NCBI GenBank assembly: GCA_024516035.1
Contig: CM044956.1
Span: 27,625,101-27,689,100, forward strand
DNA from: Bactericera cockerelli
Taxonomy: Eukaryota > Arthropoda > Insecta > Hemiptera > Triozidae
DNA: 64,000 bases
Direction: 5' to 3'
Shown here in pieces: positions 6,202 through 30,562 of this stretch. The notes below the pieces were generated by a model. The model saw nothing but the letters and a program-made list of their open reading frames with translations, was not told the origin of the DNA and did not search any database. Position numbers and translations under genes: made by a program. Position 1 is the first letter of the stretch; each line of letters starts with the position of its first letter.

Positions 6202-6530
6202 CAAGATATCTGAAATTTAGATTGAACTCTTTGCATTTATTAATCATAAATTTTATTCGAAAAACGATAGTTTTACATTTGTTTAACAAAAGTTGACCCT
6301 TTGACACCTCCCTTGGTAAAGCTAATGGTGTCAAAAAGACATGAAATTTTAATTATTTCAAACGAAAAAACATGTTTTCAACAATTTTTTCAAAATATAC
6401 AATTAATTTCTCGTAAAAATGTTACTGAATTCTCTGCTATAAAATGTAGGATTTCTCCAATTAAAAATCTCAATCTTGTCTTAAAATACTTTTGATGTCA
6501 AATACTTTTTAGAAATGTATTACAATTTTT

Positions 6531-6536
6531 TTTATT
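6531..6536 (-). promoter_or_regulatory. Candidate poly(A) signal for the collagen gene
   Basis: AATAAA is present on the minus strand about 196 nt beyond the stop codon, in AT-rich sequence with a T-rich downstream stretch. It is the nearest canonical hexamer I found after the stop. Confidence 0.55.
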
Positions 6537-6731: not shown

Positions 6732-8579
6732 TTAACTTCTGAGCTTGTTCCTGGTTCCATTGCCCCTCCTGCTGTACTTAGGCCTGTAGCTATACACGTC
6801 TGGCACACTATACTGAGCTCTCGCACTCAGCGGATCATAGTACGTCCGGTTGTATCTCTGATCATAGTTTGATACTTGCGGTTTTCGGTACTCGTGCGGA
6901 CTATAGCCGGCTCGGCTAATGGTTTGTTCAGGACTAGGTCGACTAGCCTCATAGTTGGTTCTGTTGGTTTCCGTGCCGGATCCAAAAGCTTCACTGCTTG
7001 AACCCGCAGTGGCTGCGTTAGACTCAGAACCAGATCTACTAGGGTCATATCCGGCTCGATTAGCTTCGTTACTTAATCTGAAAGGATCATATTGAGTTCT
7101 ACTCGCATCTAAGCCGGCTCTATTTGTATCATAATTAGAGCTACTTTGATCAGTGAAATTCCTGGTGGAATCATATTCAGCTCTACTTTGATCATAGCCT
7201 GGTCTACTTGAATCACTGCCGCTTCTATTAGGATCATATCCTGGACTACCTGATCTATTTTCACCTGTGGGAATCCTATTTGCATCATATTCTTGTCTAC
7301 TTGCGTCATATCCTGGTCTATTTATATCGTATCCAAGTCTATTTGGATCATAATCTGGTCTACCTGAATCACTGCCAGCTCTATTGGGATCATAACCGGA
7401 TCTACCCTCATTATAATCAGGTCTTCTAGGATCATACTCTGGTCTACTTGGATCATTACCAGGTCTACTTGCATCATATTCTGATCTACTTTCATTATAA
7501 CCTTGTCTGCTTGGATCATATCGTTGGCTACTTCCGTCGTATTCTGGTCTATTTGCATCATAGTCTGATCTACTTTCATTAAATCCTTGTCTACTTGGAT
7601 TATATCCAGGTCTACTTGCATCATAACCTGGTCTATTTGGATCACTACCGCCTCTGTTAGGATCATAACTAGATCTACTTGAATCATATCCAAGTCTATT
7701 AGCGTCATAGCCTGATCTACTCTCATTATAATTGGGTCTTCTAGGATCATATTCTGGTCTACTTGCATCATATCCTGGTCTACTTGCATCGTACCCTGGT
7801 CTACTTGCGTCATATCCTGGTCTACTTGCATCATACCCTGGTCTACTTGCATCATATCCTGGTCTACTTGCATCATATCCTGGTCTACTTGCGTCATATC
7901 CTGGTCTACTTGGATCATAACCTGGTCTCCTTGGATCATATCCTGGTCTACTTGCATCATATCCTGGTCTACTTGCGTCATATCCTGGTCTACTTGGATC
8001 GTATCCTGGTCTACTTGCGTCATATCCTGGTCTACTTGGATCGTATCCTGGTCTACTTGCGTCATATCCTGGTCTACTTGCGTCATATCCTGGTCTACTT
8101 GGATCGTATCCTGGTCTACTTGCGTCATATCCTGGTCTACTTGGATCGTATCCTGGTCTACTTGCATCATATCCTGGTCTACTCTCATTATATTCAGGTC
8201 TCTTAGGTTCATATCCCGATCGACTGTCGTCATATCCGGCTCTATTAGCACCTAGCCCGGAGCGGGATGGAGCAGTGTCCCCTCTGCTGGGGTCCCAAGG
8301 GGTAGGCTGGGGTCTGGTCTTGGACTGGGTGCGGCGAACACAGACGGAGCATCGGGAGATGCGAGTCTTGAGCTGACCAGCCTTCAGGGTCTGAGGTCGC
8401 GGTCTCCGCCACTGGTCCCGGTCGTCTATTGTGGCGAGCCAGAAGGAGGAAGCAGACGCGTAGTAGTTGCAGTGGCCCACCCCGTGGCACTGGATGAAGG
8501 GGGTGGGGCGGAACTCCTGGAGGCAGGAGCCGGGACTCACCAGGGACTGGCCACCTCCGTCTGAGCCAGAGTCCGTGTG
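6732..8579 (-). CDS. Collagen IV exon V30: second NC1 subdomain plus a 530-residue heptad-repeat tail
   Basis: This terminal exon has 615 codons and a TAA stop. The first 85 complete NC1: HTDSGSDGGGQSL, GSCLQEF, IQCHGVGHCNYY, TLKAGQL (the lysine equivalent to the sulfilimine-bonded hydroxylysine) and ISRCSVCVRRTQ. With V27-V29 this gives all 12 NC1 cysteines. Ordinary chains end within a few residues of this point. Here the frame continues for about 530 residues (coding 6,735-8,324). A basic/proline linker holding SRGD is followed by about 56 heptads of the GYDxSRP type, then a degenerate, Tyr-rich end (YDQRYNRTYYDP, YSYRPKYSRRGNGTRNKLRS). The tail has no cysteine and no obvious membrane segment. 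The open frame and the unbroken heptad register argue that it is translated; transcript evidence is lacking. Confidence 0.9.
   Translation of the reverse strand, partial: HTDSGSDGGGQSLVSPGSCLQEFRPTPFIQCHGVGHCNYYASASSFWLATIDDRDQWRRPRPQTLKAGQLKTRISRCSVCVRRTQSKTRPQPTPWDPSRGDTAPSRSGLGANRAGYDDSRSGYEPKRPEYNESRPGYDASRPGYDPSRPGYDASRPGYDPSRPGYDASRPGYDASRPGYDPSRPGYDASRPGYDPSRPGYDASRPGYDASRPGYDPRRPGYDPSRPGYDASRPGYDASRPGYDASRPGYDASRPGYDASRPGYDASRPGYDASRPEYDPRRPNYNESRSGYDANRLGYDSSRSSYDPNRGGSDPNRPGYDASRPGYNPSRQGFNESRSDYDANRPEYDGSSQRYDPSRQGYNESRSEYDASRPGNDPSRPEYDPRRPDYNEGRSGYDPNRAGSDSGRPDYDPNRLGYDINRPGYDASRQEYDANRIPTGENRSGSPGYDPNRSGSDSSRPGYDQSRAEYDSTRNFTDQSSSNYDTNRAGLDASRTQYDPFRLSNEANRAGYDPSRSGSESNAATAGSSSEAFGSGTETNRTNYEASRPSPEQTISRAGYSPHEYRKPQVSNYDQRYNRTYYDPLSARAQYSVPDVYSYRPKYSRRGNGTRNKLRS
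7032..8237 (-). repeat. In-frame 21-bp tandem array encoding about 56 GYDxSRP heptads
   Basis: The unit is 21 bp (7 codons), with consensus Gly-Tyr-Asp-Ala/Pro-Ser-Arg-Pro. Units 4-23 after NC1 (7,755-8,174) are nearly identical at the DNA level and alternate mainly between Ala and Pro versions. Units further from NC1 drift (EYDPRRP, NYNESRS, GSDSGRP) but keep the seven-residue register. One 10-residue irregular segment lies at 7,242-7,271. Each unit contributes about one Tyr, one Asp and one Arg, giving a hydrophilic, aromatic, near charge-neutral polymer. The homogeneous block suggests recent unequal exchange and likely length variation. Confidence 0.95.
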
Positions 8580-8851: not shown

Positions 8852-8966
8852 CATGAGGAAACTATAGCCGGTCCATAGTTCATCCCAGCCATTGGGACAC
8901 GTAGGTATGGTAACGGACTGAGAGTGAACAGCTATCACCCGAGTAGTGGCCTCACAGACGTTGCAT
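8852..8966 (-). CDS. Collagen IV exon V29: NC1 subdomain junction
   Basis: It starts in phase 2 and completes [19 protein letters not shown]. It then begins the second C4 repeat with [19 protein letters not shown] and ends in phase 0 at gtaaat. The VIAVHSQ and CPNGW motifs are diagnostic of the second NC1 half. It is too short to appear as a long open frame by itself. Confidence 0.95.
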
Positions 8967-9328: not shown

Positions 9329-9506
9329 CTGGAAATGTACTTCTTGAGTTGATCGGACGGGATGGGTGACATACTCATGGGCATGGGTTCAGAGGAGCTG
9401 AGCCAGTAGGAGTTGTCACTACGGGCCGCATAGTCGCAGGTCTGGGTGATGGAGCAGAACAGGAAAGGCATGACTGAGAAGCGGGGGAGACAGCTGCCCG
9501 GGGCTC
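9329..9506 (-). CDS. Collagen IV exon V28: first NC1 subdomain
   Basis: It starts in phase 1 with GAPGSCLPRFSVMPFLFCSI and reaches DQLKKYISR at gtaatg (phase 2). Cysteines of the first C4 repeat (GSC, LFC, QTC) are in place. The methionine-rich EPMPMSMSPI segment corresponds to the region holding the methionine used in the peroxidasin-made sulfilimine crosslink. It joins V27 as QDLG-APGSC. Confidence 0.96.
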
Positions 9507-12111: not shown

Positions 12112-12315
12112 CAAGGTCCTGAGCATGCGCCTTGTTGTTGCCGGTGATGTGCAGCAGTGAGTAGCCGCCCCAGAGTCTAGACGTGTGCTCGGGACAGGCG
12201 GGCTCCAGGTCGGACTGGGAGTGGATGGTGAAGTGGAAGCCTCTGTTAGGAGGAGGGGGAGGGGGGGCAGCGGGCAGTCCTGGCATGCCGGGAATACCGC
12301 GGAACCCAGGATTGC
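12112..12315 (-). CDS. Collagen IV exon V27: end of helix, proline hinge, start of NC1
   Basis: It starts in phase 1 with [14 protein letters not shown] proline-rich hinge ([10 protein letters not shown]) follows, then NC1 begins with [19 protein letters not shown]. The rest, [10 protein letters not shown] and [11 protein letters not shown], is strongly conserved in collagen IV NC1 domains. The exon ends in phase 1 at gtaagt. Confidence 0.96.
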
Positions 12316-13668: not shown

Positions 13669-13821
13669 CTCTGATCCCTGGAGCACCATCGTGGCCAGCA
13701 CTGCCTATGGCTCCCACGCCTCCTCTACCTCCAGGCCTCCCCGGCCATCCCAAGTCTCCCGGCAGTCCCTTGTGCCCCTCCGTGCCAGGGAGACCATCGA
13801 ACCCGTCAGGCCCAGGCTCTC
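13669..13821 (-). CDS. Collagen IV exon V26: helix
   Basis: It starts in phase 1 with GEPGPDGFDG and ends in phase 1 (GIRG) at gtgagt. It is unbroken Gly-X-Y over 51 codons. Confidence 0.9.
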
Positions 13822-13846
13822 CTGAAGAGCAGACAGTAAATTATTA

Positions 13847-14404
13847 TACAGAGTGTTCCCGAAACGAATCAACTTATTTAAAGGGCACATCCGATAGTTC
13901 ATGAACTATCATTTTTTTTTAAGATGAGTGTTTCACAGCCGTTTTTATTTCGTAGCAATGCAACAGGAGCTATTGTAGACGCTTGTGGTCTGTGTTGTAG
14001 CCTACCCATCCCGTAGTATGCCTCCCCTCTGATGGGCGAGAAGTGACACAATACTTTACAATTAGGTGCTGGGTCAACACGAGCGCACCGGAAGGTATCC
14101 CTTACAAACAATTGTAATGAAATTAAGAATACAAAGAATACAAATTAAGAATACAAACAAACGACCGTTTCGGTTGATAATATTCATTTTGGGAAATAGG
14201 GATATGAATAATGTCAATTTGAGCTGGGAGGTTTTACAAATAAATCGAAGCAAATCAAATAAATCCACTTATAATCAAACCAAGCATCAAAAGAAATTCC
14301 ACTCCAAAGCAAAATGACCCATAGTAAGTTGAGCTTATATGATGGTGCATGAGGTGCCAGATGTGCCTTTTAAATAAGTTGATTCGTTCCGGAAACATCC
14401 TGTA
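13847..14404. mobile_element. Hairpin MITE, TACAGAG/CCTGTA ends
   Basis: The inverted arms share cgaatcaacttatttaaa at the left and its complement at the right. TA precedes the left end. A related single arm occurs at about 31,930-32,160. It lies in the V25-V26 intron. Confidence 0.7.
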
Positions 14405-14647
14405 TTGTTGTTGTAGGGGCGAGCACTTTCCAACTATGTTTAGAAGTAATAGTTTATTATCATTTTGGAAAAATGCTGATGACACAAGCTATTCCTAACT
14501 CGTCCTGGCCTACGATATATTTCTGAATCACCTAATGTGGTACCAGGTATTGGGAGGCTTTTATCTTGTTTCAACTGTATTTAAACCCAAGCTTGGGTTG
14601 GATTGTGAAAAATATAGGAGTTTAGTACAAAACCAGGCATGCATTAC

Positions 14648-14738
14648 CTGGTTCTCCAATGGTTCCTGGGTTACCGGCCATGCCTTTGATCCAGGTAATA
14701 TTGATCAAGGGAGTGAAGCCAGGCTCTCCCTTCATACC
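14648..14738 (-). CDS. Collagen IV exon V25: helix with an interruption
   Basis: It starts in phase 0 with GMKGEPG, passes through the interruption FTPLINITWIKG (which carries an NIT glycosylation sequon), and ends in phase 1 (GEPG) at gtaatg. Confidence 0.88.
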
Positions 14739-15125
14739 CTGAAAACATTAAGTCATAATACATATTCAACTCTTTTATTCAAAGTCATCTCACTCCTCGT
14801 CATACTCATAGTATTCTAGGATCTCGAATGTTCTATCGCCCAGGTGGAATGCAGCATCTATACGAGGTCGGCCTCTTCTTACTCAAGTAGTACTTCTGAA
14901 AATTTGTTAACACGACATTGGTCTAAATTATTTTCACACTAGGATGTTGATGATTATTTAATCAACGCTTCGGTTTAGTCACTTGTTAACTTCCAATAGC
15001 ATTTTTTTGTAGGATTCTCAAATTGCTAGAGCTCTTCCACAATGAAACACATCCCCTAATCTAATTATAAATACTTGGGGTGGTATCTTCTTCTCTGTTT
15101 CTTAATATATGCTATTATTATTATA

Positions 15126-15220
15126 CACTAGCGGGTTCACACACACACACACACACACACGCACACAACACAAACACCAGACACTCACCACACACATACA
15201 CCACACTCCACACACACCTG
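15126..15220. repeat. Truncated Helitron end with (CA)n tract
   Basis: ctagcgggtt is followed directly by (CA)n. It looks like the 3' end of the 9,571-10,543 family with expanded repeats. The short reading frame over it is an artefact. Confidence 0.55.
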
Positions 15221-15671
15221 TTACTAACGATCTTTAAAAAAAAGGTTAGCCTTTGACCTATTACAAAGGACTGCAGTACCAATGGCTGGCTCTGACACTT
15301 ACTGAAACGATAATGATGCATCAGAAGGACAATGTCAGACAGAATACCATCACTCTGAAAATCTCCCAGTGCTTGTCTTTTGGCATCATGACAAGGGTTG
15401 GAGACAACTGATGTGAAGTAGTCGTTAAGCTCATTTTTATCCAATTTGATTAATCAAAATGTCATTGATAAACACTCATATAGCAGTAATCAAATGATTA
15501 ATTGATAAACAAATACTTAAAGCTGTGTCAATATCTGATAAAAATGGCTGTGAAAAACACATAATAAAATACACCGCAATGATTATGGAGACAGCAATTC
15601 CTCGTAATGCTTGTGAATTCAATTTTCCATTATACACATAACAAATTAATGCAAACTTATAAGCGTCTCAC

Positions 15672-15849
15672 ATGAACTCCAGGACTACCATCCAGCCCCG
15701 GTCTGCCCTCGTTCCCTCTGTATCCTCTGTCGCCTTTGAATCCAGGTGGCCCTTGCATTCCCCAGAGTCCTTCCTCACCAGGCTCTCCAAAGTTACCGTC
15801 TAGTCCTGCCAGCCCTGTGAGCCCCACCATGCCTGGCTGACCTTTCGGA
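15672..15849 (-). CDS. Collagen IV exon V24: helix
   Basis: It starts in phase 2 (S)PKGQPGMVG and ends in phase 0 (GSPGVH) at gtgaga. The Gly-X-Y run is regular through GLDGNFGEPG and GRPGLDG. Confidence 0.88.
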
Positions 15850-16084
15850 CTGAAAGGGAAGGTAAGTTAAAATCAAGTAGAGGGAAAACGACAAAAGTAC
15901 AATGTGGGTAATTAAACCAACTTAGCAGCGTTTACATTCGTCTTTGAGAAGTTTTTGTCTTTACTGACTTTCTCTTTTGAGCCTTCGAAATCAGAAATAG
16001 GGCCAGAATTATAGGTAGATATAATGAATATCGAATTATCTACCTTTCATATATGCACTATATGCAGTATTAAATTTTATAAGT

Positions 16085-16272
16085 AACATTTTTTTTTTTT
16101 CAAAGCTTTATTAGGTAGAACAAAAAATATATACAGTAGAACACAATGAAATATAAAGAAAAACAAAAAGATTAAACAAATATACAAGAAGGAATAAAAG
16201 AGAGAAATGTCCTACCTAAAGGGCGGGGTTATTGCCTGTGGCAATCTCTTCCACCCAACCCTTTAGTTAGAG
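16085..16272 (-). repeat. LINE 3'-end fragment
   Basis: The minus strand reads gggttgggtggaagagattg, then ggcaataaccccgcccttta, ending in an A-rich tail after acctaataaagc. It is closely related to 21,950-22,110 and 27,598-27,790. The pattern resembles RTE-like LINE 3' ends, but no coding sequence is present. Confidence 0.6.
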
Positions 16273-16312
16273 CTCCAAGCATTAAAAGTAATAACCCGCC
16301 TCATGCACGCAC

Positions 16313-16466
16313 CTGCCCCGGGCGTAGCCTGGCTCTCCCCTCTCTCCCTTGAGTCCTCGCAGGCCTGGCTTGCCGTCGATTCCTGGAAGTCCATGCATTC
16401 CAGGAATCCCTGGAATTATTAAACCCGGAGCTCCTTGCCTTCCTGGATTGCCCTTCCTGCTAAAAC
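16313..16466 (-). CDS. Collagen IV exon V23: helix
   Basis: The phase-1 start after cccccacag gives [13 protein letters not shown] second AG six bases further in (ttttag) would break the phase with V22, so the outer acceptor was chosen. The exon ends in phase 2 (GYARG, codon AG/T) at gtgcgt. Together with V24 this makes a GYARGSPKG interruption. Confidence 0.85.
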
Positions 16467-16865
16467 CTGTGGGGGTTAAAATATTGGGGAAAAAATGTAT
16501 TAAAAAAACATATATTATATTTAATTAGGTAGGTGTACCTATTATGTAAGGGACTCATCGGAAAACCTTAAAAAAAAAAAAAACAACTTTCTACTTTTAC
16601 ATTAATTTACTTAAACTCAAGGCATTGACATTATTGCAATCGGTCAATGTTTTATACAGAGTAGGTAAGTGACGCAGTCGATTTTTTCGGCCCCTCTTGG
16701 AAAGACAAAAATGCTACACTGATATCATTCATGAGACCCTGTGGTTGATTTTGAATAAATGACGAGAGGTACACTCTTGAAGTATCCTAATGGATAGACA
16801 TCACGTGACTGTATACTACTGTATAGGCACGTGCCTGTATGGGGCATGGGTCCTTGTATTCTCAC

Positions 16866-17012
16866 CTGGTAGGCCCTGGGGCCCAGGAGGCCCGTTCAGT
16901 CCATAGTCGCCAGGATACCCTTTCATTCCTCCAACTCCTGGGCGTCCCGGAATGCCTGCGTATCCTTCCCTTCCTGTTTCTCCCTGCTCGGCATTCATCA
17001 TATCCGTCAAAC
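16866..17012 (-). CDS. Collagen IV exon V22: helix with an interruption
   Basis: It starts in phase 1 with GLTDMMNAEQG, a non-collagenous interruption, then continues in Gly-X-Y to GLPG at a gtgaga donor (phase 1). Confidence 0.9.
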
Positions 17013-17309
17013 CTGTTACATAAGATAATAATTAATTATACTGTCTTAATTATACTGCCCGACTAGCACTGATGAGTCCCATTATTCCAGCAGTAAGCCC
17101 AAGACGCATTATTATATGGTCAAAATCACAAATGGAAGATAACTTGTCATCTCCCGGCTATGTTTCGAAGGACGCACGCCAGTTCGCTGCCAAGATGAAA
17201 TTCCATCTATACTCACTCTAATCTGTATGTTACAAAGATTTTTAAATAGGTTATGAAATTGAGAAATAAAATGTGTGGATACACAGAAAAGTAAATGTAA
17301 TGTACTTAC

Positions 17310-17409
17310 CAGGAAGTCCTGGTGGTCCTCGATCCCCAACTAACCCTTTAGGTCCTTGGAATCCTGCATACCCAGGGTTTCCTCTGGGTCCACAGTCTCC
17401 TGGGAAACC
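17310..17409 (-). CDS. Collagen IV exon V21: helix with a lone cysteine
   Basis: It starts in phase 0 with GFPGDCGPRG and ends in phase 1 (GLPG) at gtaagt. A single cysteine in an X/Y position of an unbroken triplet run is unusual and could form an inter-chain bond. Confidence 0.9.
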
Positions 17410-18011
17410 CTGTAGAAGTGAAAATGTATCATTACACAATTTAAGTTTTGTGAAACTAACTGTTATAACAAATACCCCAAAGTTATAAAAGGAAGAACGC
17501 CTTCTCAAAAGAATGAGTACAAAAAGCTTAAAAATAAATCATAACAAATTGACAACACTTTTACCCCCTCTGTCACTATTTCTTTGCAATCTTTTCTGCA
17601 TTTATTCCTTTTATGTTATCTTTATTTTTCCTGTCATCCTAAACTTGATTCCTATTTAAGTTTTACTTGTTGAACGGTAATAAAAACTGGCGGTTATGAA
17701 ACTTTTCGTGTCTTTCACAATTGTTTGGCGGGTCTCAAAAATAGGGTTTCCGTTGGCCTAGCAAGTGAAACAAAAAGTCAAATCAATTACTTTTTCGATG
17801 TACAGTTTATTTGTATAAAAAAATCGCAAAAATACTCTTCATGTTGTGGTTTTCGTCAAGAAATGTTTTGATCAAAAAAGACTGATATCAGAGGACAGTC
17901 CTTGAAGTTTACTAGACGTAAACTTTCCTTGAGAATTCTAAGTAGATAGATTAATTTCACTATGGAAAAGAATGCGATATAATCATCTATGTAGAAGGTC
18001 CAAGCACTCAC

Positions 18012-18214
18012 TTTGGTTCCATTTCGGCCGGGCCAGCCGAGGTAGCCTCGGGGCCCAATTAGTCCTGGGAAGCCTTCCATTCCCGGCTCCCCCCGGTCCC
18101 CCCTAGTGGCGATGATGTTGATCTCTGTGAAGCCGGGATCCCCCTGAAGTCCTTTCTGTCCTGGGGCGCCTTGAAATCCTGGTAACCCGCGGAGACCACT
18201 GTCCCCGGGCAGAC
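18012..18214 (-). CDS. Collagen IV exon V20: helix with an interruption
   Basis: It starts in phase 1 with GLPGDSGLRG and ends in phase 0 (GTK) at gtgagt. The segment FTEINIIATRG is a hydrophobic interruption. Other open frames over this exon are shadows; the frame that joins V19 to V21 is the Gly-X-Y one. Confidence 0.9.
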
Positions 18215-18816
18215 CTGAGATGAGAGAGACAAAAGTTTGTTCATGAAATGACCAATTTATTCGACCGATTGAATAACACGGTAAGCATAAAATAATAACT
18301 AGTCATGACTCCTGGATAACTCATAGATATACAGAGTGAATGGAAAGTCCTGAGTGGAAAGACTGAGGTACAAATTTAAAAATATTTTATTTATTTTTAG
18401 CATAATATTTTAGCTTTCTCACTATCTCTCAAGTATCTCATTTGCGGAACCGATATCGTAAATTCGAATGACTTTTTTTTTTGTTGCTTCGCTGGATCGG
18501 AGCATACCTCTGAGAAGGACGAATCTATGTATAACAATCGGAAAGATAGGGTATTAGGCGGAATTGGATGCGCTATTAGAAATTCAATTGAACTTTTGAA
18601 TTTCTAAAAACTCATGAAACTTGATTGAAGATCTACGTAAAAATGGATTATTAATACCTCCTATTGAGGTGTTCAAAACTTCTATACAAGATCAAAACGC
18701 ATGCAGTTGGTTGTTGGAGGTCTTGAGCCCAAACGGTCTGTCAGAACCCCACAAGACATGACATTACTACCTATATTTCGAAAGCAACTCAGTTCATATT
18801 ACTCTTTAAAATTTAC

Positions 18817-19015
18817 CTGGTCGTCCCATTTTGCCTGGGTCTCCCTCCATGCCGACTTCACCTTTCGCTCCTGGTGTCCCCGGGTAGCCAGGAGGTCCCC
18901 GCCGCCCATTGCTACCAGCCACTCCCGGCATGCCAGTCACCCCTGCGTATCCTTTAGGTCCAGGCTCCCCGTCTTCTCCCTTGAATCCTACTAGACCAAG
19001 GTCTCCCATAGGGCC
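18817..19015 (-). CDS. Collagen IV exon V19: helix
   Basis: It starts in phase 0 with GPMGDLGLVG and ends in phase 1 (GRPG) at gtaaat. It is 199 nt of continuous Gly-X-Y. Only a 183-bp intron separates it from V18. Confidence 0.93.
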
Positions 19016-19198
19016 CTGTTCAAAAAAAGAAAGAAAAAAAAAGATGAGCCTTAAAAGGAGTAAATTTCGATTGGCAATTGGCTAGTTGTTAACCAAGCAG
19101 CCACGGCGCGGCGCTGCGATTCAGATTTATAATGTTATATGATATACTAAATGATTTTGATGAAGTAGGAGGTTATTTTAAGTGAGCAGTTCACTCAC

Positions 19199-19356
19199 CC
19201 TCTTGCCCGGAGAACCCGGTATTCCATTGTATGCATCTTGGCCCTTGAGTCCTTGGTACCCTGGATCACCGTCAATGCTTTCCCCGAGGTCTCCTAGGTC
19301 CCCGGGCGGACCAGGCATACCCGGCTGTCCCGGGTATCCTACTGGACCAACGTACC
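19199..19356 (-). CDS. Collagen IV exon V18: helix
   Basis: It starts in phase 1 with GYVGPVGYPG and ends in phase 0 (GKR) at gtgagt. Breaks occur at GESIDG and GQDAYNG. Confidence 0.9.
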
Positions 19357-19689
19357 CTGGAATTGAAGCAAAGTGAGTAAGATACCCTTTCTCCTAAATT
19401 CTAGATTCCTTCTACAAAAAAAAAAAAATGTATCGGTAAGTCGTAGGCCTTAATTTTGCACATTTTTGTTCAAAATTTTGGATTTTCTTAAATATCATAG
19501 CTAAATCATGTTTTATTGGAAAATAATTACAAATGGACTATGTAAAACACTAATATGTATGCATATTCATACAAAATGTCAAATTTCAATTCAATAATAT
19601 GAGACTAGGATTCATTGTCATCTGGACTAATTCATAGTCACAATATTTCTCAAAATGGCGGAACTTAACTTTGATAGCGTTTATATAAA

Positions 19690-19920
19690 AACTAGCGGGT
19701 TACACCCGCTAGTTTTTATATTTATAAAACTAGCGGGTTACACCCGCCGCTTCGCCAGCCCATCAGACACACACATACACCACACACACTCAAACACACT
19801 CACATACACCCACCCTCACACCACACACACACAACACCACACCACACACACACATACCCACACACCACACACACACTACGTCATCAAAGTCGAAAAACGT
19901 AAATATTTTTTGTCACCCAT
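19690..19920. repeat. Helitron-end cluster with (CA)n tract
   Basis: ctagcgggttacacccgc occurs twice, at 19,692 and 19,730. The second copy is followed by the (CA)n-rich tract and a short piece of the 9,571-10,543 element body. Confidence 0.6.
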
Positions 19921-20337
19921 CTAATGTTTGTCAATTCAAATTTTGAGAAAAAATGTTATTTAGGTCAAAAAAACGTAAAAAAAAATAATTGTGTCGCCCA
20001 TCTAATTTTTAGAAGTCGCTCTTTTTCCTTCGCGGCTAGCGCCCCAGTTGGAATATAATAAAATACTTTCTTATTGTACATCTAAAATATAAAGTCAACC
20101 TATATATACATATACATTTTTAGCCACCAGAAATTTACCGGTACCGAGAATCAGTGATGAAAAGGTGAAAAAGTGCGTTTTTTCATTTAAATTCGCCCCT
20201 TTTCCCCCGCGGCCGGCGACCCAGTGAGAATATTTCAAAATCCTTTCTTAGTACACATCTAAGACCTAAAGGTGACCTACATGCCAAATTTCAGCCTCCT
20301 AGGACATACCAGTGCTGAGAAATCGAAATATATGAAA

Positions 20338-20742
20338 TACAGGGTGTTTCAGAAAAGAGTGCATTAATTTTAACCACTTATTTTATGTACCATTTTAGGG
20401 GGGGTCAACTCTATAACAAAATGGGCGAAACCACGAAAAAAGTATGGCCTATTTTCTTTCAGTTAACCCCCCTGTGGCCGTCCCTGAAAGTGCAATGACC
20501 TCAATTCTCACATAAAAATAACGGCGTCATCTTGTATTGGGAGTCAATTTTTTTCCGCGTTTCAATAACTCTAAAAGGTAAGGCGTAATACAAAATCTAA
20601 TATTTTTTTTAAAGAACCTTTAGAGATGTGTATCTCCCTTATGAAGCACTTTCGCCCATTTTGTTATAGAGTTGACCCCCCCTAAAATGGTACATAAAAT
20701 ACGTGGTTAAAATTAATGCACACTTTTCTGAAACACCCTGTA
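20338..20742. mobile_element. Hairpin MITE, 405 bp, TACAGGGTG ends
   Basis: TACAGGGTGTTTCAGAAAAG at the left is mirrored at the right, and the arms extend through gagttgacccccc. The sequence folds nearly end to end. A TA flank is visible only on the right. Confidence 0.8.
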
Positions 20743-20809
20743 TACTAGCGGGTTACACCGTTTTTCAGCCTCCTAGGACATACCAGTGCTGAGAAATCGA
20801 AATGAATGA

Positions 20810-20900
20810 TACTAGCGGGTTACACCCGCCGCTTCGCCAGTCCATCAGACACACACACGCACGCCAGACACTCACCACACCACACACACACCACATACGC
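20810..20900. repeat. Helitron end with short (CA)n tract
   Basis: Another ctagcgggttacacccgccgcttcgcc-type end followed by CA-rich sequence, beside the hairpin MITE at 20,338-20,742. Confidence 0.55.
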
Positions 20901-21173
20901 CATTTTGTTTTCGTACATTTTATCAATCCAACTCAAAGAGATAAAATTTTAGATTTTGACCTCCATCTATTTTTGAAGAAGTTATGACATGAAACTTGTA
21001 TTTGGGCTTTTGTTCCGTACTTCCGAAAGAAAGGCCAAATACAAAATCACCTCATGTAAAAAATGACGACATATTAATAACATTGCAAAGGTGTGCATTT
21101 TATGTCAGAAACTCCTACATAACCTTGTACTGCCATTAATAACCGTCAATCCTCGGCTTCATGATTAACTTAC

Positions 21174-21264
21174 CTCCATCTCCTTTGTCTCCTTGTTCTC
21201 CACTGAAGGCAGATTCTCCTTTCGGCCCTGCAAATCCCATGGGTCCGAAATCTCCTGGTAATCC
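21174..21264 (-). CDS. Collagen IV exon V17: helix
   Basis: This 91-nt exon starts in phase 0 with GLPGDFGPMG and ends in phase 1 at gtaagt after GDKGDG. One interruption (GESAFSG) is present. Phases V16-V17-V18 agree. Confidence 0.88.
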
Positions 21265-21581
21265 CTAGAAAAAATCTAGGTGTAAGTAGTTACACAGTAC
21301 ATCCCAAACACTAAAGAATCTTAGATGTTTTAAAGCTTCAAAAAACTAGGTTGTCCCACAGTTACGATGAGGTCTTTCAAAGATTTATTTAAAGCGCCAA
21401 GCATAATACCTGTATTTTTCATAGTCTCTTACATCCATAGTCTTTTACCTATTTCCATAGTGTTCAATAAGTATGTTCATGTGCATATAATTAAAATTTG
21501 AAGCTCTCATTGTTTCCACGGCTTATTAGAGTTGAACTCTTTTGCCCACATATAACCTCGCTTTCGAAATAAATTTAAAGT

Positions 21582-21722
21582 TGTCATATTTGTGTTAATC
21601 ACAATCATCATAACACGATTAGTCAAACTAGATTAACAAAATTTTTGCTTAACTTGGAACATGAACCAGATTTCAAGCCCGCCGACTTATCGATCAATCG
21701 CCTATTGAGGTCACCATTGGTC
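21582..21722 (-). repeat. tRNA-derived SINE, degenerate copy
   Basis: It shares tcatatttgtgttaatcac...caaact and a tRNA-like tail (gacttatcgatc...gaggtc) with copies at 31,286-31,442 and 33,852-33,996. Confidence 0.5.
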
Positions 21723-21806
21723 GAATTTGGCAACTTCTTGGAGGAAAAGACTTGTGATGTTCACACTAGATTGACTAGATTATTTTTATTATTGTATCCT
21801 TGTTAC

Positions 21807-21922
21807 CTTCACTCCTGCCGCGCCATACAACCCGTCACGGCCCTGGGGACCGGGGAGGCCGCGAAGACCTTTGGGCCCCGGTGGCCCCTCCACCCCTCCT
21901 GGGCCTGGGAATCCTCGCAGTC
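21807..21922 (-). CDS. Collagen IV exon V16: helix
   Basis: It starts in phase 1 with GLRGFPGPGG and ends in phase 0 (GVK) at gtaaca. The Gly-X-Y run is unbroken. Confidence 0.9.
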
Positions 21923-21949
21923 CTGAAATAATAGTAAGGAACAGGTATG

Positions 21950-22110
21950 TTAAGATTGCCACAGGCAATAACCTCGCCATTTAGGTAGGACACTTCATTA
22001 TCTTTTTTTGTTCTTGTATTTCTTTGCTTAGTCTTTTTGTTTTTCTTTATAATTTCATTGTATTTTACTGTGTATATTTTTTGTTCTACCTAATAAAGCT
22101 TACTATAATA
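21950..22110 (+). repeat. LINE 3'-end fragment
   Basis: agattgccacaggcaataac...ttcattgtatttt...tacctaataaagc with a TAATAA-type tail. It is the same 3' end as 27,598-27,790. Confidence 0.6.
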
Positions 22111-22996
22111 ATCATAATAATATCTTTCATTTATTAGCTCTCTTTTCTCTATGGGGTAAGCTATTGTTCTTTACAAGTGTTCAAGTCAAAAGTTACCGAC
22201 GGGGGTGTGTTTTTCCATCATTTGGGGTCAATACATGATCATTCACTCTGGTTTAAAAAAAGGAAGAAAAACACGTAATTCTTTGATTTTTAAGGGGACT
22301 CCCAACCGGGAGCTCTTACTTCATAGGGGCTTTATTGAAGCCCTACAATAAAATCCACCACATCAGCCTCCTTTTGCCTTTAGATCCGAGATGTTTTTTC
22401 CTTGCAATTCAAAGGCTATAACTCAACTTATTTTTTCAAAACTTAATCGCCGCCCCTGGGCATCATAGACCGCCTGGGGATGCCGTTCAATAGTGCAAAA
22501 GTGTCATGTCGACGAGAACTACAAGTTCTATTCTCGCACATTACGTATCTCGAGCGGAAAGCCCAAAGCCAAGAAGGGTGACCAAGTGCCCCTTCAGTTA
22601 TGCAACCAGAAATGTCGATGACACTTTTCCTGGAATCTCCGTACCAGACACACACACACAAAACACAATCTAAATAGGACGCCAGCCTCAGAAAAAGATA
22701 TTATTATTTTTAGTTGGGCAGAGACAATTTCAACTTCTCTATGGGCAACTTCCTTTTCAGAAACAACATTGATGTTTTCTGCATTAGCCATAGTGCACTC
22801 AAATCCTCAATCGAAGAGGTATTATCTTAATACTTGTATAATGGATCTTTTTTCTTATCCAATTATACCTATTTACTATAATTTATAATAAAAATTATTA
22901 TATCTTTTATCTATTTCCCAAGGTCTACATTGTAATAGAGTACCAATAAACTTGTTATGTAAACCTTGTAAAAATAAATAAAATAGTTAGACTCAC
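22111..22996. other. Intron V15-V16, remaining part
   Basis: I see no exon or classifiable repeat in this stretch. The short frames on either strand have no recognisable domain and no Gly-X-Y pattern. Confidence 0.6.
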
Positions 22997-23282
22997 CCGG
23001 AAAGCCCACATCTCCTCTGTCTCCCTGGATGCCAGGTATTCCAGGGAAACCATTTTTGCCCATTCTTCCCGGGATGCCCTCCAGCCCAGGCTCCCCCAGC
23101 TGCCCCCTGGCTCCCAGCAGCCCGTAGCCGCCCCGCGTCCCTTTCTCTCCATCCTGTCCTGCATAGCCCACGGCGCCTGCCATGCCGCGGTCTCCCTGCA
23201 ACCCTTTCAGTCCAGGCAAGCCAGGAGCGCCGGGAATGCCAGGGCGGCCCGGCCTTGAAATGCCTTCTCTACCCTTCTCACC
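22997..23282 (-). CDS. Collagen IV exon V15: long helix exon
   Basis: It starts in phase 0 with GEKGREGISRPG after a gtccccag acceptor and ends in phase 1 (GFPG) at gtgagt. After one short interruption (ISRPG) it is continuous Gly-X-Y for more than 80 residues. It includes a GDRGDVG segment. Confidence 0.93.
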
Positions 23283-24961
23283 CTGGGGACGGTAAGCCAG
23301 AGTAGAATAAATTAGAATGTTCAACTTTTTTTTGGCAATCTGTATAAATAACCCCAACATAGACCCACAAAATGTTAAACTTGATAGTCTAATCTATTTA
23401 TTTCCACATAAATATATTGTAAGCTCCATTCGTTAACTCGTGGCGGGCGTATGAAAAATGTAAAATGGGCCCAATTCTTACGTCATCGAGTACAGGAATG
23501 AAACCAGTATCATATTACGTGGAAAGGTCCCCTGGGTTCAGATTTCCAAGGTCAGAGACGTGTTTTCTGGGACTAAACCCGAGTCAGACGGCTCTAAAGA
23601 CAACTCGGAGGGACCAAATTCTTTTATCATAAAGTACAAAAATGAAACTGGTAAATAAATAAAGAGAATGTTCCCCTGAATCCAAGAAATCTCAAGGTAA
23701 GACATTTTTTCTGGGGCAAAACCCTGCTCTACCCACCGCCAGCGCCAGTCAAATTTCATATCAAATTCAATGACTTTGAAGTGCTGATTACAAATTTGCA
23801 TTGATTTTTAGCTACCTGTAATTGTTGAGTCACCAGTGGCGGAATTCGACTCTTTTTTGGGGGATAAGGAAAGTCGTGTGATGTTTACACTAGATTTTTG
23901 TACTTTATGACGTAAGAAATCAAGGCCTAGCTCCCCTACTAACATTATCCTCGATGTATTTTAATAGATCTAATTAATGACATTTGTTATAAAAATGTAT
24001 CTTGTCTCTAGTTTACCTGGTCACTATAGTCCTGTGTTGTTTGTCAACTTACGGGAGGTCCTAGATCACCATTCAATCCGGGTGAGCCTTTCAATCCAGC
24101 CATTCCTTTGATTCCATCCCGACCTGGTATACCGCGATATCCTTCGAGACCTGAAAAAGAATCGTGCGTTAGTTGATTGTTTCCGATTTTTAAGTGCGTT
24201 CTTTGCGATAAAGTTAGTTATTCCGTAAAGTACCTTGCGATAGTGAAGTTTAGTGAATTAGTAAGCGGTTGTGAACAATTTAATTTTTTTTTCCTTTGTG
24301 ATTTAATAAAGTGAAATATTTATTTGTGCGATATTTGCGAGCTTTGTCTATCACAGACTAAACGAACCCAGCCATCCAGACATTTAACAATACCTTTGCG
24401 AATTTTATTGGCTTTAAATATCTATAAAAATGTATTTAAAGATGCATCGTTTGAAAGGTGAACTAAAAATTGTGGAAAATGAATCAAACTTGATGTCGCA
24501 AATTCACAGGACTCTTCTTCAGAACACATATTAGAAGGTATTAATTTTTTCCATTTTTGTAGGAAGTATTGCCATCGTTTTCTTGTTGTCTAATAAATTT
24601 GTTTTGTCAATTATTTTAGTACGAAAAAGTGCAAAACATTTCTTTTCTTAGAGCGAAGCAGTAGTTTGATCTACTGTTAAAAAAAAAACCAAGGTCGGCT
24701 ATGTTGCAACATCACAGTTGCCAAAGGTCAGACCAAGTTTCTTGCTAAGAGCAAAGTGTTCGTTTAGTGTATTTATCATTAGATGACCAAAAATAACTTC
24801 TACGTTTTCAAATTTTGACATTTTACTAGGTACATACTTGCTACTGTACTATGCCACCAAAATAACTTTATAACCAGATTGTGAGATTTTTTTTTACCAT
24901 TTAATCTAACATAGCTATATTATATAACATTATTTCACATCTGTAATCCATTATTTAGTAC
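23283..24961. other. Introns flanking exon V14
   Basis: Apart from V14 (24,053-24,150) I recognise nothing here. The AT-rich sequence has no visible repeat structure. Confidence 0.55.
24053..24150 (-). CDS. Collagen IV exon V14: helix
   Basis: It starts in phase 1 with GLEGYRGIPG and ends in phase 0 (GPP) at gtaagt. It is 98 nt of uninterrupted Gly-X-Y, too short to stand out as an open frame by itself. Confidence 0.9.
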
Positions 24962-25070
24962 CTTCTTCTCCCACCTCTCCTTTCAGTCCTGGCGTCCCGG
25001 GAAAACCATACTCGCCAGGGATAAGAGATTCACCGGGAGTTCCTCGCTCTCCTTTGCCGCCGTTGATACC
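24962..25070 (-). CDS. Collagen IV exon V13: helix
   Basis: It starts in phase 0 with GINGGKGERG and ends in phase 1 (GEEG) at a gtacta donor, which is weaker than its neighbours. GESLIPG is a short interruption. The phases of V12 and V14 require exactly this exon. Confidence 0.88.
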
Positions 25071-25450
25071 CTGAGGAAGTTATAATGCCGATATTAGGTT
25101 CAGATTAACACCAATTTGAGATCAATCTCACAAAGCAGGATTCTAGTAAGGATACATTTATGTGTATCAAGTGTAAAGAGAAGATAAAAAACAAAGAAGT
25201 GGGATACAAGAAAGTGGAGGAGGAAGTGAATTTAAGATTTTATTTTTTTTATTTAATTCTTAAATGAATAAGGTTTAAATTAAAAGAATGGTTAGATAAA
25301 GAAGAAGTCAAAAAGAAAATTGATGATATTATAATAAAATGAATAAAGAAGATAATAGATTTTTAGAGGAAATTAATTTAAATAAAATGGATAAATTAAA
25401 AAATAATATATACATATTATATACAAATGTATCAATAAATTATAATAATA

Positions 25451-26340
25451 TACAGGGTCTTTCATAAAGTCTCACCCAGGCCTAGGTTTCTCGAGAACGA
25501 CTCAGAATATCAAAAAACGCAAAAACCTGTATTCCTTTATATTTAGGGGCATTGATTTTCAGCCAAATTTTTTTTGCCTACACGGCCCCAGTCAGGCTGG
25601 GCATGGACCAACTTTAAAATCTTAAATAGAATGGTATGTCTTGTGGCATATTGTTTTAGAGGTCTTATTGAGAGAAGTTCATTACAACAAATTTTAGTGA
25701 GCTACGACTTACCGTTCTCGAGATACAGGGTCGGACGTCCTGCGTAATATCCATATATTATAACCTATAACTCGTTAACCGTAAGTTATGGAGAAAATTT
25801 TTCTTGTTAATAATAACTCCTTATGGCAAGAACTTTCGAACAAGTTAAAACTTGATTTGTTTTTTCTTTAAATTTTTTTCGACTGTTCGTCCGGCTGGTT
25901 GACGAAACCGAGCAGAAACTAACATCAATAGAGTATGTCGAGTTATAACTTGTTCGAAAGGTCTTGTCATAAGGAGTTATTATTAACAAGAAAAATTTTC
26001 TCCATAATTTATGGTTAACGAGTTATAGGTCAAAATACATGGATATTACGCAGGACGTCCGACCCTGTATCTTGAGAACGGTAAGTCGTAGCACACTGAA
26101 ATTTATTGTAATGAACTTCTCTCAATAAGACCTTTAAAACAATATGCCACAAGACATACCATTCTATTTAAGATTTTAAAGTTGGTCCATGCCCAGCCTG
26201 ACTGGGGCCGTACGCAAAAAAAAAATTGGCTGAAAATCAATCCTCCTAAATATAAAGGAATAGGGATTTTTGCGTTTTTTGATATTCTGAGTCGTTTTAG
26301 AGAAACCTAGGCCTGGGTGAGACTTTATGAAGACCCTGTA
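25451..26340. mobile_element. Long-hairpin MITE with TA target duplication (copy 2)
   Basis: This 890-bp element is a close relative of 10,804-11,699, with TACAGGG/CCCTGTA ends and TA on both flanks. Both arms carry the cacggccccagtcaggctgg and cgttaaccgtaa blocks. It lies in the V12-V13 intron. Confidence 0.85.
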
Positions 26341-26509
26341 TATAAATTATAATAATTTACGGTGTCGCGTAAATCAAAGGTTTTTCATTGTTTACGCATG
26401 CCTGTACCAGCTTAGGTAGCGTCCGGATACAGCGACCATCCGGATATAACGACGGGAAAGTCTGGTTGCTTGGGCGTCGTTATAAGTGAAATTCACTGTA
26501 TTTACTCAC

Positions 26510-26703
26510 CGGAAATCCAAGAGGTCCTACCCGCCCTGGTTCCCCCTCCCTTCCCTTCGGCCCTTCGTTTCCTCGCATGCCGGGCAGGCCCTTGAATCCT
26601 GGCGGCCCTTGGATAGCTAGGCCCTGCAGGCCCATGGGCCCGGACTCTCCAGGGATGCCCTTGTATCCCGTCACACCCGGGGCCCCAGTGAAACCGGCGG
26701 CAC
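26510..26703 (-). CDS. Collagen IV exon V12: helix
   Basis: It starts in phase 1 with [10 protein letters not shown] and ends in phase 0 (GFP) at gtgagt. The short break GLAIQG interrupts an otherwise regular helix. Confidence 0.92.
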
Positions 26704-26968
26704 CTAGGAAATAGATTAATGTGTAGAAAACGAGTCTCATTATTTTGTAATATTATTGGGGCTTGGAAAGCGGAAAAAACCCGTCGCTGGGAAACCCACC
26801 TTTAAACTGTGAATAGAGAACTCACACAGATACGACTCTAAATTTCACCTTCTTTTGCGGGGAAACTGTCCATTTTTGAAACCTGATTTTTGGTACAGCT
26901 ACTCTTTAATATAGAACACAACTGTCAGTCACACATTATCAAATTTGACAGGAATCAGTTTTACTTAC

Positions 26969-27218
26969 CCTTTTCTCCGGGCGTTCCCAAGAAGCCTTTC
27001 TCTCCCTTCATGTTGTATATGTTCTTACTGGAAGCTCCTCGTTCCCCCTTCGCTCCCATGTCCCCGGGGGCTCCCCTCTCCCCAGGAACACCTTGGTACC
27101 CGTCGTCACCTCTCAGATATTCCTTGGGAACTGACGCTGCGTCCCCTTTAGAGCCTGTGATTCCGTCGATGCCGTCAATGCCGTCTCTGCCTGGCTCTCC
27201 CGCCGCTCCGTACATACC
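26969..27218 (-). CDS. Collagen IV exon V11: helix, beside the minisatellite
   Basis: It starts in phase 0 with GMYGAAGEPG at a tatcaccag acceptor and ends in phase 1 at gtaagt. Interruptions include DAASVPKEYLRG and ASSKNIYNMKG. Its 3' splice site lies in the first unit of a 28-bp tandem array, so copies of the same acceptor sequence recur upstream about 51 times. The acceptor next to the open frame is used in this model. Confidence 0.92.
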
Positions 27219-28845
27219 CTGGTGATATTCATAACATAGTCATACCCTGGTGACATTCATAACATAGTCATACCCTGGTGATATTCATAACATAGTCATA
27301 CCCTGGTGATATTCATAACATAGTCATTCCGTGGTGATATTCATAACATAGTCATTCCCTGGTGATATTCATAACATAGTCATTCCCTGGTGATATTCAT
27401 AACATAGTCATACCCTGGTGATATTCATAACATAGTCATTCCGTGGTGATATTCATAACATAGTCATTCCCTGGTGATATTCATAACATAGTCATACCCT
27501 GGTGACATTCATAACATAGTCATACCCTGGTGATATTCATAACATAGTCATACCCTGGTGATATTCATAACATAGTCATACCCTGGTGATATTCATAACC
27601 AAAGGGTTGGGTGGAAGAGATTGCCATAGGCAATAACCCCGCCCTTTAGTTAGGACTTATGTTTTTATATATTAGATCTTTTTCATTTTCATTGTATATA
27701 TTGTTTCCATTTTTTTCATTGTTAAATTAATTATTTGTATGTACATAATGTCCATTTATACCTAGTAAGCGTTGTATAATAATAATAATAACATAGTCAT
27801 ACCCTGGTGATATTAATAACATAGTCATACCCTGGTGATATTCATAACATAATCATACCCTGGTGATATTCATAACATAGTCATACCCTGGTGATATTCA
27901 TAACATAGTCATACCCTGGTGATATTCATAACATAATCATACCCTGGTGATATTCATAACATAGTCATACACTGGTGACATTCATAACATAGTCATACCC
28001 TGGCGATATTCATAACATAGTCATTCCCTGGTGATATTCATAACATAGTCATACCCTGGTGATATTCATAACATAGTCATACCCTGGTGACATTCATAAC
28101 ATAGTCATTCCCTGGTGATATTCATAACATAGTCATTCCGTGGTGATATTCATAACATAGTCATACCCTGGTGACATTCATAACATAGTCATTCCCTGGT
28201 GATATTCATAACATAGTCATACCCTGGTGATATTCATAACATAGTCATTCCCTGGTGATATTCATAACATAGTCATACCCTGGTGATATTCATAACATAG
28301 TCATTCCCTGGTAATATTCATAACATAGTCATACCCTGGTGATATTCATAACATAGTCATTCCGTGGTGATATTCATAACATAGTCATACCCTGGTGACA
28401 TTCATAACATAGTCATTCCCTGGTGATATTCATAACATAGTCATACCCTGGTGATATTCATAACATAGTCATTCCCTGGTAATATTCATAACATAGTCAT
28501 ACCCTGGTGACATTCATAACATAGTCATACCCTGGTGACATTCATAACATAGTCATACCCTGGTGATATTCATAACATAGTCATTCCCTGGTCATATTCA
28601 TAACATAGTCATACCCTGGTGACATTCATAACATAGTCATACCCTGGTGATATTCATAACATAGTCATACCCTGGTGATTTTTATAACATAGTCATACCC
28701 TGGTGATATTCATAACATAGTCATACCCTGGTGATATTCATAACATAGTCATACCCTGGTGATATTCATAACATAGTCATACACTGGTGACATTCATAAC
28801 ATTATTATACCCTGGTGATATTCATAACATAGTCATATTCATAAC
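27213..28845. repeat. 28-bp minisatellite, about 51 copies, containing copies of the V11 splice acceptor
   Basis: The unit is ataccctggtgatattcat followed by aacatagtc. On the minus strand each unit reads ...tatgaatatcaccag/GGTAT, the same sequence that forms the 3' splice site and first codons of exon V11. About 14 units lie at 27,213-27,598 and about 38 at 27,791-28,845, split by a LINE fragment. Variants are mostly single-base (atacc/attcc, gatatt/gacatt). Confidence 0.95.
27598..27790 (+). repeat. LINE 3'-end fragment inserted in the minisatellite
   Basis: gggttgggtggaagagattg, ggcaataaccccgcccttta and a TAATAATAATAA tail interrupt the tandem array. The insertion must post-date part of the array's expansion. 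Confidence 0.65.
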
Positions 28846-29059
28846 ACCGTAGCCTCTAGCGTTTTGTTTTTTGTATGAATATAATTTTGAGTAGTTTTTT
28901 TAATTTCTTTTATTATTTTTTTTACACTCTGATTATTTTTTGAAAATTTTATTTTAAAAAAATGTATATTTTCCTATGTAAGTAAGTGCTTTTTACTTTT
29001 CGAAAAGGAAACCGAAACCTCTAATTCAACTGTACCAAGGTGAAATAAAGGAAACTTAC

Positions 29060-29256
29060 CTTCTCTCCTTTTCTCCCCGTCTGTCCGATAAATCCTTTTT
29101 CCCCCGCTAAGCCTGGGTATCCGGGTGGGCCCTCGCGGCCTGGATATCCCTTGGGCCCTGGTAGCCCAGGGTCCCCCCGCACCTGATCAACCACTACTCG
29201 ACTGACAGGTGCGAGTTTTCCAGGGGGACCTGGGGGTCCGGGCGGCCCTTGAATAC
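29060..29256 (-). CDS. Collagen IV exon V10: helix with an interruption
   Basis: It starts in phase 1 with [10 protein letters not shown] and ends in phase 0 (GEK) at gtaagt. The segment [15 protein letters not shown] is a non-collagenous interruption of about 15 residues, followed by regular GDPGLPG helix. Confidence 0.92.
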
Positions 29257-30419: not shown

Positions 30420-30562
30420 CTGGAAACATGAACAAGGAGCTAAGTAATATCGAATTTTACTATTTCAATTGTTGACGTTGATTTCTATATAAGTTCATGA
30501 TGGTGTGACGTGATTGAGAGATAAATTCTTCATCAATTTTCGAACTATCATTACAATTATTA

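What the first reader, a model, noticed from the sequence alone, without database searches (positions are those of the whole stretch)
6735..8324. A collagen IV chain with a 530-residue Tyr/Asp/Arg heptad-repeat tail after NC1
Seen: the NC1 frame runs past CSVCVRRTQ without a stop, through about 56 GYDxSRP heptads, to a TAA. Known: collagen IV chains normally end at or just after NC1, which drives trimer choice and network assembly. Inference: the tail would hang outside the NC1 hexamer in the basement membrane. It offers many regularly spaced tyrosines (possible dityrosine or sulfation sites) and alternating charge, and could act as an adhesive, crosslinking or spacer module.
Basis: partly seen in the sequence, partly recalled or inferred. 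Interest (0 to 1): 0.92.

Follow-up and report, generated by a model that had tools for sequence, protein, structure and literature searches.

The report
Giant tyrosine-rich tail on insect collagen
One of an insect's two basement-membrane collagen chains carries, by its gene sequence, an unusually long floppy tail made of a seven-residue tyrosine-rich motif repeated about 55 times; fruit flies have a tail of unknown function at the same place, and this giant version makes it easier to test what such tails do.

Summary
A 30-exon collagen IV gene model on the minus strand splices to 2262 aa without a stop (5' end not modelled). NC1 is intact and is followed, in the same exon and frame, by 531 residues: a linker, about 55 relaxed Y-D-x-x-R heptads (20 strict GYDxSRP) and a 92-aa Tyr-rich non-repeat cap, then TAA. 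The array is a 21-bp minisatellite, but translation is supported: no frame-changing indel over 46 copies at 76% match, and a stop-free, GC-rich cap beyond it. The chain falls in the Viking (Vkg) clade (100/99); its divergently placed partner groups with Cg25c and stops at NC1. New here are the size and the regular Tyr/Asp/Arg design. Most likely it is a disordered multivalent arm outside the NC1 hexamer, offering Tyr for weak contacts and perhaps peroxidase chemistry; an assembly-blocking tail and a merely tolerated minisatellite remain live rivals. Function and expression are inferred, not shown.

The parts
6732..8579 (-). Terminal exon (E30): most of the second C4 subdomain of NC1, whole tail and TAA stop (6732-6734)
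   Evidence: Open frame, acceptor attcacag|CAC, Pfam C4 profile positions 29-109 of 110
6735..8327 (-). 531-residue tail after NC1 (residues 1732-2262 of the model)
8238..8327 (-). Entry linker, 30 aa, holds one RGD (residues 1746-1748)
8175..8237 (-). Three diverged heptads before the homogeneous core
7755..8174 (-). Homogeneous core, 20 heptads GYD[A/P][S/R]RP; pN/pS 0.13, few independent changes
7011..7754 (-). Degenerate heptads; one break of the heptad register (10-residue stretch, residues 2084-2093), frame kept
6735..7010 (-). C-terminal cap, 92 aa as delimited here, Tyr-rich without heptad spacing; GC 0.51, 0 stops in frame against 5.1 in shuffles
8852..8966 (-). E29, NC1
9329..9506 (-). 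E28, NC1 (holds the Met93 equivalent)
12112..12315 (-). E27, end of the collagenous domain and start of NC1
13669..45668 (-). E1-E26, Gly-X-Y exons (first exon found 45429-45668; 5' end of the gene not modelled)
6236..6536 (-). Three AATAAA hexamers (first bases 6536, 6257, 6241), about 196, 475 and 491 nt after the stop; candidate polyadenylation signals

Best explanation
Identity (shown by sequence): this is the post-NC1 tail of the insect's Viking-type collagen IV chain, lengthened to 531 residues by in-frame growth of a 21-bp minisatellite. Mechanism (inferred): the tail is a disordered, charge-balanced arm hanging from the NC1 hexamer. In Drosophila protomers are two Cg25c plus one Vkg, so by analogy two arms would project from each hexamer. 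Regularly spaced Tyr and Arg act as weak repeated stickers between networks or to other matrix proteins, and the Tyr can be modified or joined by peroxidasin, which works at the adjoining NC1. The NC1 itself keeps its sulfilimine residues, so the arm would add to ordinary collagen IV assembly, not replace it.
For: Hand-built model of 30 exons with consistent phases, 2262 aa, 0 stops. Met93 and Lys211 equivalents kept. Tree of 19 rows: window chain, Dmel_Vkg and 7 other rows form a 100/99 clade; the partner chain groups with Dmel_Cg25c (92/86) and stops at CIKRR. Coding tests: 0% indels in 46 copies at 76% match; in the cap 0 stops against 5.1 expected, P(0)=0.0033, and over 6735-7330 none of 3000 shuffles was stop-free. 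Disorder: charge-hydropathy below the Uversky boundary (0.305 against 0.415), charged fraction 0.30, net charge +0.004 per residue; AlphaFold pLDDT blocks of 34-49 in the tail, no helix or strand there. Tyr 11.1% of the tail against 2.3% in the collagenous part and 3.1% in NC1; an isopod Vkg-clade tail has unrelated repeats, also with 10 Tyr in 84. [quoted passage not shown]
Against: No transcript or protein evidence. No relative with the same heptads was found, so conservation between species is untested. Fly tails evolve fast (PMC10694668). In the degenerate units pN/pS is 0.61 in frame and 0.53 in another frame, and third positions of the Tyr, Asp and Arg codons vary as little (9-18%) as their first and second positions, which fits shared descent of copies as well as selection. 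Apparently noncoding 21-bp minisatellites abound in this genome. Fly tail peptides were not detected in the purified hexamer, so a tail may be cut off. The structure model used half an NC1, itself modelled poorly, and 13 sequences. The beetle tail is not clearly Tyr-enriched and the five shorter tails have 0-2 Tyr.
Confidence: 0.4

Rival explanations
1. Latency tail: the arm covers the NC1 trimer face in the cell and hemolymph, preventing early hexamer formation, and is cut off at the site of assembly. This was proposed for Drosophila Vkg in PMC10694668.
For: Same clade and same position; fly tail peptides were missing from the purified hexamer, and low-confidence models put its C-terminal residues at the hexamer interface in about every other case (PMC10694668, passages). 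Here a distinct non-repeat cap sits at the end of the tail, formally like the partly conserved end of the fly tail.
Against: No RxKR/RxRR furin-type site in the tail, only six dibasic pairs. Latency by itself does not explain about 55 Tyr heptads. Whether the cap resembles the fly's last ~25 residues could not be tested (fly sequence not available here).
Confidence: 0.25
2. Tolerated minisatellite: Vkg ends need only some disordered sequence, and a 21-bp array grew there by slippage and unequal exchange, kept open only by selection against stops and frameshifts.
For: The genome holds many 21-bp arrays; core repeats are nearly identical, hence recent; tails of other Vkg-clade rows differ in sequence and length; degenerate-zone pN/pS is not decisive.
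Against: In the degenerate units first and second positions of the Tyr, Asp and Arg codons vary 0-21% while third positions of the Gly, variable and Pro codons vary 42-61% (but see the third positions of Tyr/Asp/Arg under the best explanation). Tyr-rich repeats of unrelated sequence recur in an isopod.
Confidence: 0.28
3. Not part of the mature product: the tail is spliced out, not transcribed, or an assembly error.
For: No RNA evidence here. Donor-like sites lie inside the tail (best 7264, scoring above 9 of 29 real donors of the gene) and in the NC1 part of the exon (8540, above 22 of 29). The partner gene shows a frame break that may be an assembly error.
Against: No acceptor downstream of 8517 in exon 30, or within 800 nt after it, reaches the third-weakest real acceptor of the gene (acceptors further away were not scored). 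The frame stays open through the array and the non-repeat cap, and a tail at this site is usual in the clade.
Confidence: 0.07

Closest known systems
Drosophila Viking (Vkg) tail after NC1 (PMC10694668)
   Same: Same NC1 clade, same position, absent from the partner chain, predicted poorly structured
   Different: The passages read mention no heptad array; some conservation only in its last ~25 residues within the genus; here 531 aa of Tyr/Asp/Arg heptads plus cap
Idotea (isopod) Vkg-clade chain P0012
   Same: Same clade; tail right after NC1; Tyr-rich tandem repeats
   Different: 15-residue GYGGxxYGSPGxxxx units, Gly 32 of 84; fewer charged residues (K+R 8, D+E 6); record is partial
Gonioctena (leaf beetle) Vkg-clade chain P0009
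   Same: Same clade; 107 residues past SRCAVC, with Pro 15, Arg 10, Tyr 7
   Different: No tandem repeat seen; Tyr excess not clear
Resilin and other dityrosine-forming insect matrix proteins (recalled)
   Same: Disordered Tyr-bearing repeats using much the same residues
   Different: Different repeat and domains; resilin is a cuticle protein; no homology is claimed
RNA polymerase II C-terminal heptads
   Same: Tyr every seven residues in a disordered tail (phmmer matches in the repeat region)
   Different: Intracellular, YSPTSPS (recalled); no homology claimed

Membership tests
Collagen IV | C-terminal NC1 made of two C4 subdomains | tested here: met
   Pfam C4 2.4e-24 in exon 30; four pieces of the window gene match C4 in the genome search; NC1 matches 13 distinct PDB sequences, best single-NC1 chain E 4.4e-98
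Collagen IV | Long interrupted Gly-X-Y domain | tested here: met
   about 1500 residues over exons E1-E27
Collagen IV | N-terminal 7S region and signal peptide | not tested
   5' exons not modelled; first exon found begins [13 protein letters not shown]
Collagen IV | Sulfilimine residues Met93 and Lys211 | tested here: met
   aligned residues are M and K (residue numbers recalled, positions counted on human alpha1); the bond itself was not testable
Viking (Vkg) orthologue | NC1 groups with Drosophila Vkg, not Cg25c | tested here: met
   100/99 clade of 9 of 19 rows; Dmel_Vkg is a long branch, so its exact place is unsure
Viking (Vkg) orthologue | Tail after NC1, absent in the partner chain | tested here: met
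   531 aa; partner stops at CIKRR
Viking (Vkg) orthologue | Conserved last ~25 residues of the Drosophila tail | not testable with these tools
   the fly tail alignment is in a supplement not open here
Resilin | Resilin repeats and chitin-binding domain (recalled) | tested here: not met
   Pfam finds only C4 in the 625-aa frame at E up to 0.1; the repeat differs from the recalled resilin unit
RNA polymerase II CTD | YSPTSPS heptads on RPB1 | tested here: not met
   matches start at query residue 121 or later, in the tail; the frame holds NC1 and no other Pfam domain

The most novel reading that the evidence does not exclude
The arthropod Viking tail is a fast-evolving, repeatedly re-invented Tyr-rich module that sits beside the peroxidasin-served NC1 and gives arthropod basement membranes a second, tyrosine-based bonding system besides the sulfilimine bond; this insect has taken it to an extreme, with 59 Tyr per arm.
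Probability: 0.2. Interest if true: 0.85.

Novelty: new variant of a known kind. Interest (0 to 1): 0.55.

Why it matters
The function of the Vkg tail is stated as unknown in PMC10694668. A 531-residue tail with a regular Tyr/Asp/Arg design sharpens the choice: latency needs only a blocker, whereas multivalent contact or Tyr chemistry predicts many regular Tyr. Its repeated peptides are good markers, so whether such tails stay in basement membranes could be settled by mass spectrometry in one species.

Tried and rejected
Other genomic sources of the heptads: 91 matches of the tail in the own genome, 81 of 944 candidates scored. Besides the tail itself, the loci L016-L022 (six places; L016 and L020 are the same array) are other minisatellites with 21-bp units or multiples, read through in several frames and unrelated in sequence; that they are noncoding is inferred, not tested. 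The remaining places were not opened.

Same-tail relatives: three protein searches (in 15 and 27 only about 8000 candidates were scored) gave no collagen with these heptads. P0001-P0004 look like unrelated low-complexity proteins (of P0002 only the last residues were seen). Few full-length insect collagens seem to be in that database, so absence means little. A scan of prokaryote genomes gave one Streptomyces match (not opened) and viral contigs none.

Stop-avoidance simulation: 0 stops against 8.1 expected, P(0)=0.0004, but a column shuffle gives only P=0.035, and the same simulation on the genome's other arrays reaches P<=0.003 in 4 of 21 frames, because copies are related. I do not use it as proof. 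The control arrays are younger (mean 0.2-2.0 differences per unit) than the degenerate tail units (5.5), so they are imperfect.

The indel argument also has an exception: an 8-copy, 15-bp array in L019 has 78% match and 0% indels. The limits of the cap were chosen after seeing the sequence, and the shuffles over 6735-7330 break up repeats, which makes that test less strict.

pN/pS in the degenerate zone (0.61 in frame, 0.53 in frame 2) is not decisive.

P0005 (duck) and P0021 (Polypterus) have odd ends past NC1; I took them for gene-model artefacts and did not count them as tails. The other 12 vertebrate-type rows (P0013-P0020, P0022-P0025) end 4 residues after the last CxVC.

Full report
CHECK. 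The minus-strand frame 6732-8609 is open for 625 codons. It contains the end of an NC1 domain (Pfam C4, E 2.4e-24) and runs on to TAA at 6732-6734. I built the gene by hand from Gly-X-Y open frames and splice sites: 30 exons, consistent phases, 2262 residues, no stop; the 5' end (signal peptide, 7S) is not modelled. NC1 is residues 1507-1731 and the tail residues 1732-2262, 531 aa, window 6735-8327. Strict GYDxSRP occurs 20 times, the relaxed heptad 55 times, Y[DNE]xxR 48 times.

ANATOMY OF THE TAIL. In order: a 30-residue linker with one RGD; three diverged heptads; 20 nearly identical heptads; a degenerate heptad zone with one break of register (residues 2084-2093); and a cap of 92 residues as delimited here, which starts with a Ser-rich stretch and is Tyr-rich (11 of 92) but has no pair of Tyr seven apart. 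Composition: Ser 79, Arg 75, Pro 65, Tyr 59, Asp 57, Gly 55; Lys+Arg 80 against Asp+Glu 78; ten N-glycosylation sequons. The homogeneous copies lie nearer NC1, the more diverged ones further out.

IS IT CODING? The array is a minisatellite, and such arrays are open in several frames by nature, so openness alone is weak. (a) 46 copies at 76% match carry 0% indels, while two long arrays of comparable divergence carry many: the 28-bp intronic array of this window (83% match, 3-4% indels) and L022 (77-79%, 9-10%). A short 15-bp array in L019 (8 copies, 78%) has none, and younger arrays show 0-1%. (b) The non-repeat cap has 0 stops in frame where dinucleotide shuffles give 5.1 (P(0)=0.0033), and GC 0.51 in a window of GC 0.38; over 6735-7330 no shuffle of 3000 was stop-free and all five other frames have stops. 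(c) In degenerate units the first and second positions of the Tyr, Asp and Arg codons vary 0-21%, against 42-61% at the third positions of the Gly, variable and Pro codons; but the third positions of the Tyr, Asp and Arg codons also vary little (9-18%), and first positions of the variable and Pro codons vary 52-58%. pN/pS there is 0.61 in frame and 0.53 in one other frame, so this alone decides nothing; in the young core it is 0.13, from few independent changes. (d) A stop-avoidance simulation gave P=0.0004, but it proved badly calibrated on other arrays of the genome (4 of 21 control frames at P<=0.003) and I set it aside. Splice scoring trained on the gene's own 29 introns finds donor-like sites at 7264 (above 9 of 29 real donors) and, inside the NC1 part, at 8540 (above 22 of 29), but no acceptor downstream of 8517, up to 800 nt past the exon, that reaches the third-weakest real one. 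AATAAA hexamers follow about 196, 475 and 491 nt after the stop.

WHICH CHAIN? The window's genome (565 Mb, 1032 contigs) gives eight C4 matches, four from this gene and four from one gene on the opposite strand of the same contig, 109 kb from NC1 to NC1. The two genes are divergent, 5' ends facing. The partner ends ...SRCQVCIKRR and a stop: no tail. In a tree of 19 NC1 sequences the window chain falls with Drosophila Vkg and seven database rows, three of named arthropods (leaf beetle, barnacle, isopod) and four unnamed (100/99); the partner falls with Drosophila Cg25c (92/86), in a 100/99 group with the vertebrate alpha2-type rows. Dmel_Vkg is a long branch, so its exact place is unsure. The NC1 keeps the Met93 and Lys211 equivalents of the sulfilimine bond (residue numbers recalled, positions counted on human alpha1).

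WHAT IS KNOWN. PMC10694668 (passages, section 4, first part of the Discussion) reports that Drosophila Vkg has a tail after NC1, absent from Cg25c and vertebrate chains, function unknown, with some conservation only in the last ~25 residues within the genus; tail peptides were not found in the purified hexamer; the authors suggest that it may block early assembly and be cut off. It also reports Cg25c-Vkg-Cg25c protomers. Ten literature searches (open-access papers, listings; one search showed 15 of 87) showed no other paper on such a tail. PMC10656227 was searched for 'tail', 'extension', 'insect' and 'hemipter' without a hit.

RELATED TAILS. Of the 20 proteins found with the exon 30 frame, seven fall in the Vkg clade (13 of the 20 were put in the tree); all seven run past the last SRCxVC, by 21, 25, 10, 107, 39, 15 and 84 residues (P0006-P0012), against 4 in 12 of the vertebrate-type rows. 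Some are fragments whose true ends are unknown, and P0008's excess is only six residues. The isopod tail (P0012, partial) is a different tandem repeat, GYGGxxYGSPGxxxx, with 10 Tyr in 84 (3.1% Tyr in the rest of its sequence); the beetle tail (P0009) has 7 Tyr in 107 (4.1% in the rest; not a clear excess); the five shorter tails have 0-2 Tyr. So two of the three long tails are clearly Tyr-rich, with unrelated repeats. This suggests repeated evolution towards Tyr, on a very small sample.

MECHANISM. Shown by sequence: position, chain, frame, composition. Predicted: disorder, by charge-hydropathy and by AlphaFold (tail blocks 34-49 pLDDT, no helix or strand in the tail; pTM 0.21; the half NC1 itself was modelled poorly, so this is weak). 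Inferred: a flexible arm, two per hexamer if protomers are built as in the fly, with Tyr/Arg as weak stickers and Tyr open to peroxidasin. [quoted passage not shown] Dityrosine by peroxidasin in this setting is my inference. Latency and tolerated repeat are the main rivals, and my evidence does not separate them well.

VERDICT. Present as described, coding by the weight of sequence evidence, and a new, extreme variant of the Vkg tail. My estimate for the identity alone is about 0.9; for identity plus the favoured mechanism 0.4. Interest 0.55.

Noticed in passing
window 27213-28837: A 28-bp minisatellite of about 57 copies sits in an intron of this gene and runs right up to the acceptor of exon 11 (27218): the unit contains CACCAG|GGTATG, so the acceptor itself is repeated (32 exact copies of CACCAGGGTATG, the used one included). 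The frame of exon 11 runs into stops within the array.
   Followed up: partly
L009:1222-1392 (G000:C2, about 27,741,200-27,741,400): The partner Cg25c-like chain has an apparent frame break inside an otherwise normal NC1 exon (a TGA inside the C4 match); either an assembly error or a real lesion.
   Followed up: partly
window 47280-48330: A Tc1/mariner-like transposase frame (named by recall, no search) with two stops before its apparent end, upstream of the first collagen exon found.
   Followed up: no
own genome, e.g. L016-L022: The genome holds many minisatellites with 21-bp units (or multiples) that read as heptad repeats in several frames; a trap for anyone annotating repeats as proteins.
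   Followed up: partly
P0012 (Idotea baltica, partial): An isopod Vkg-clade collagen IV chain carries a Tyr-rich tandem-repeat tail after NC1, unrelated in sequence to the window's.
   Followed up: partly
window 8277-8285: An RGD triplet starts at the 15th residue after NC1, at the base of the tail; could be chance.
   Followed up: no
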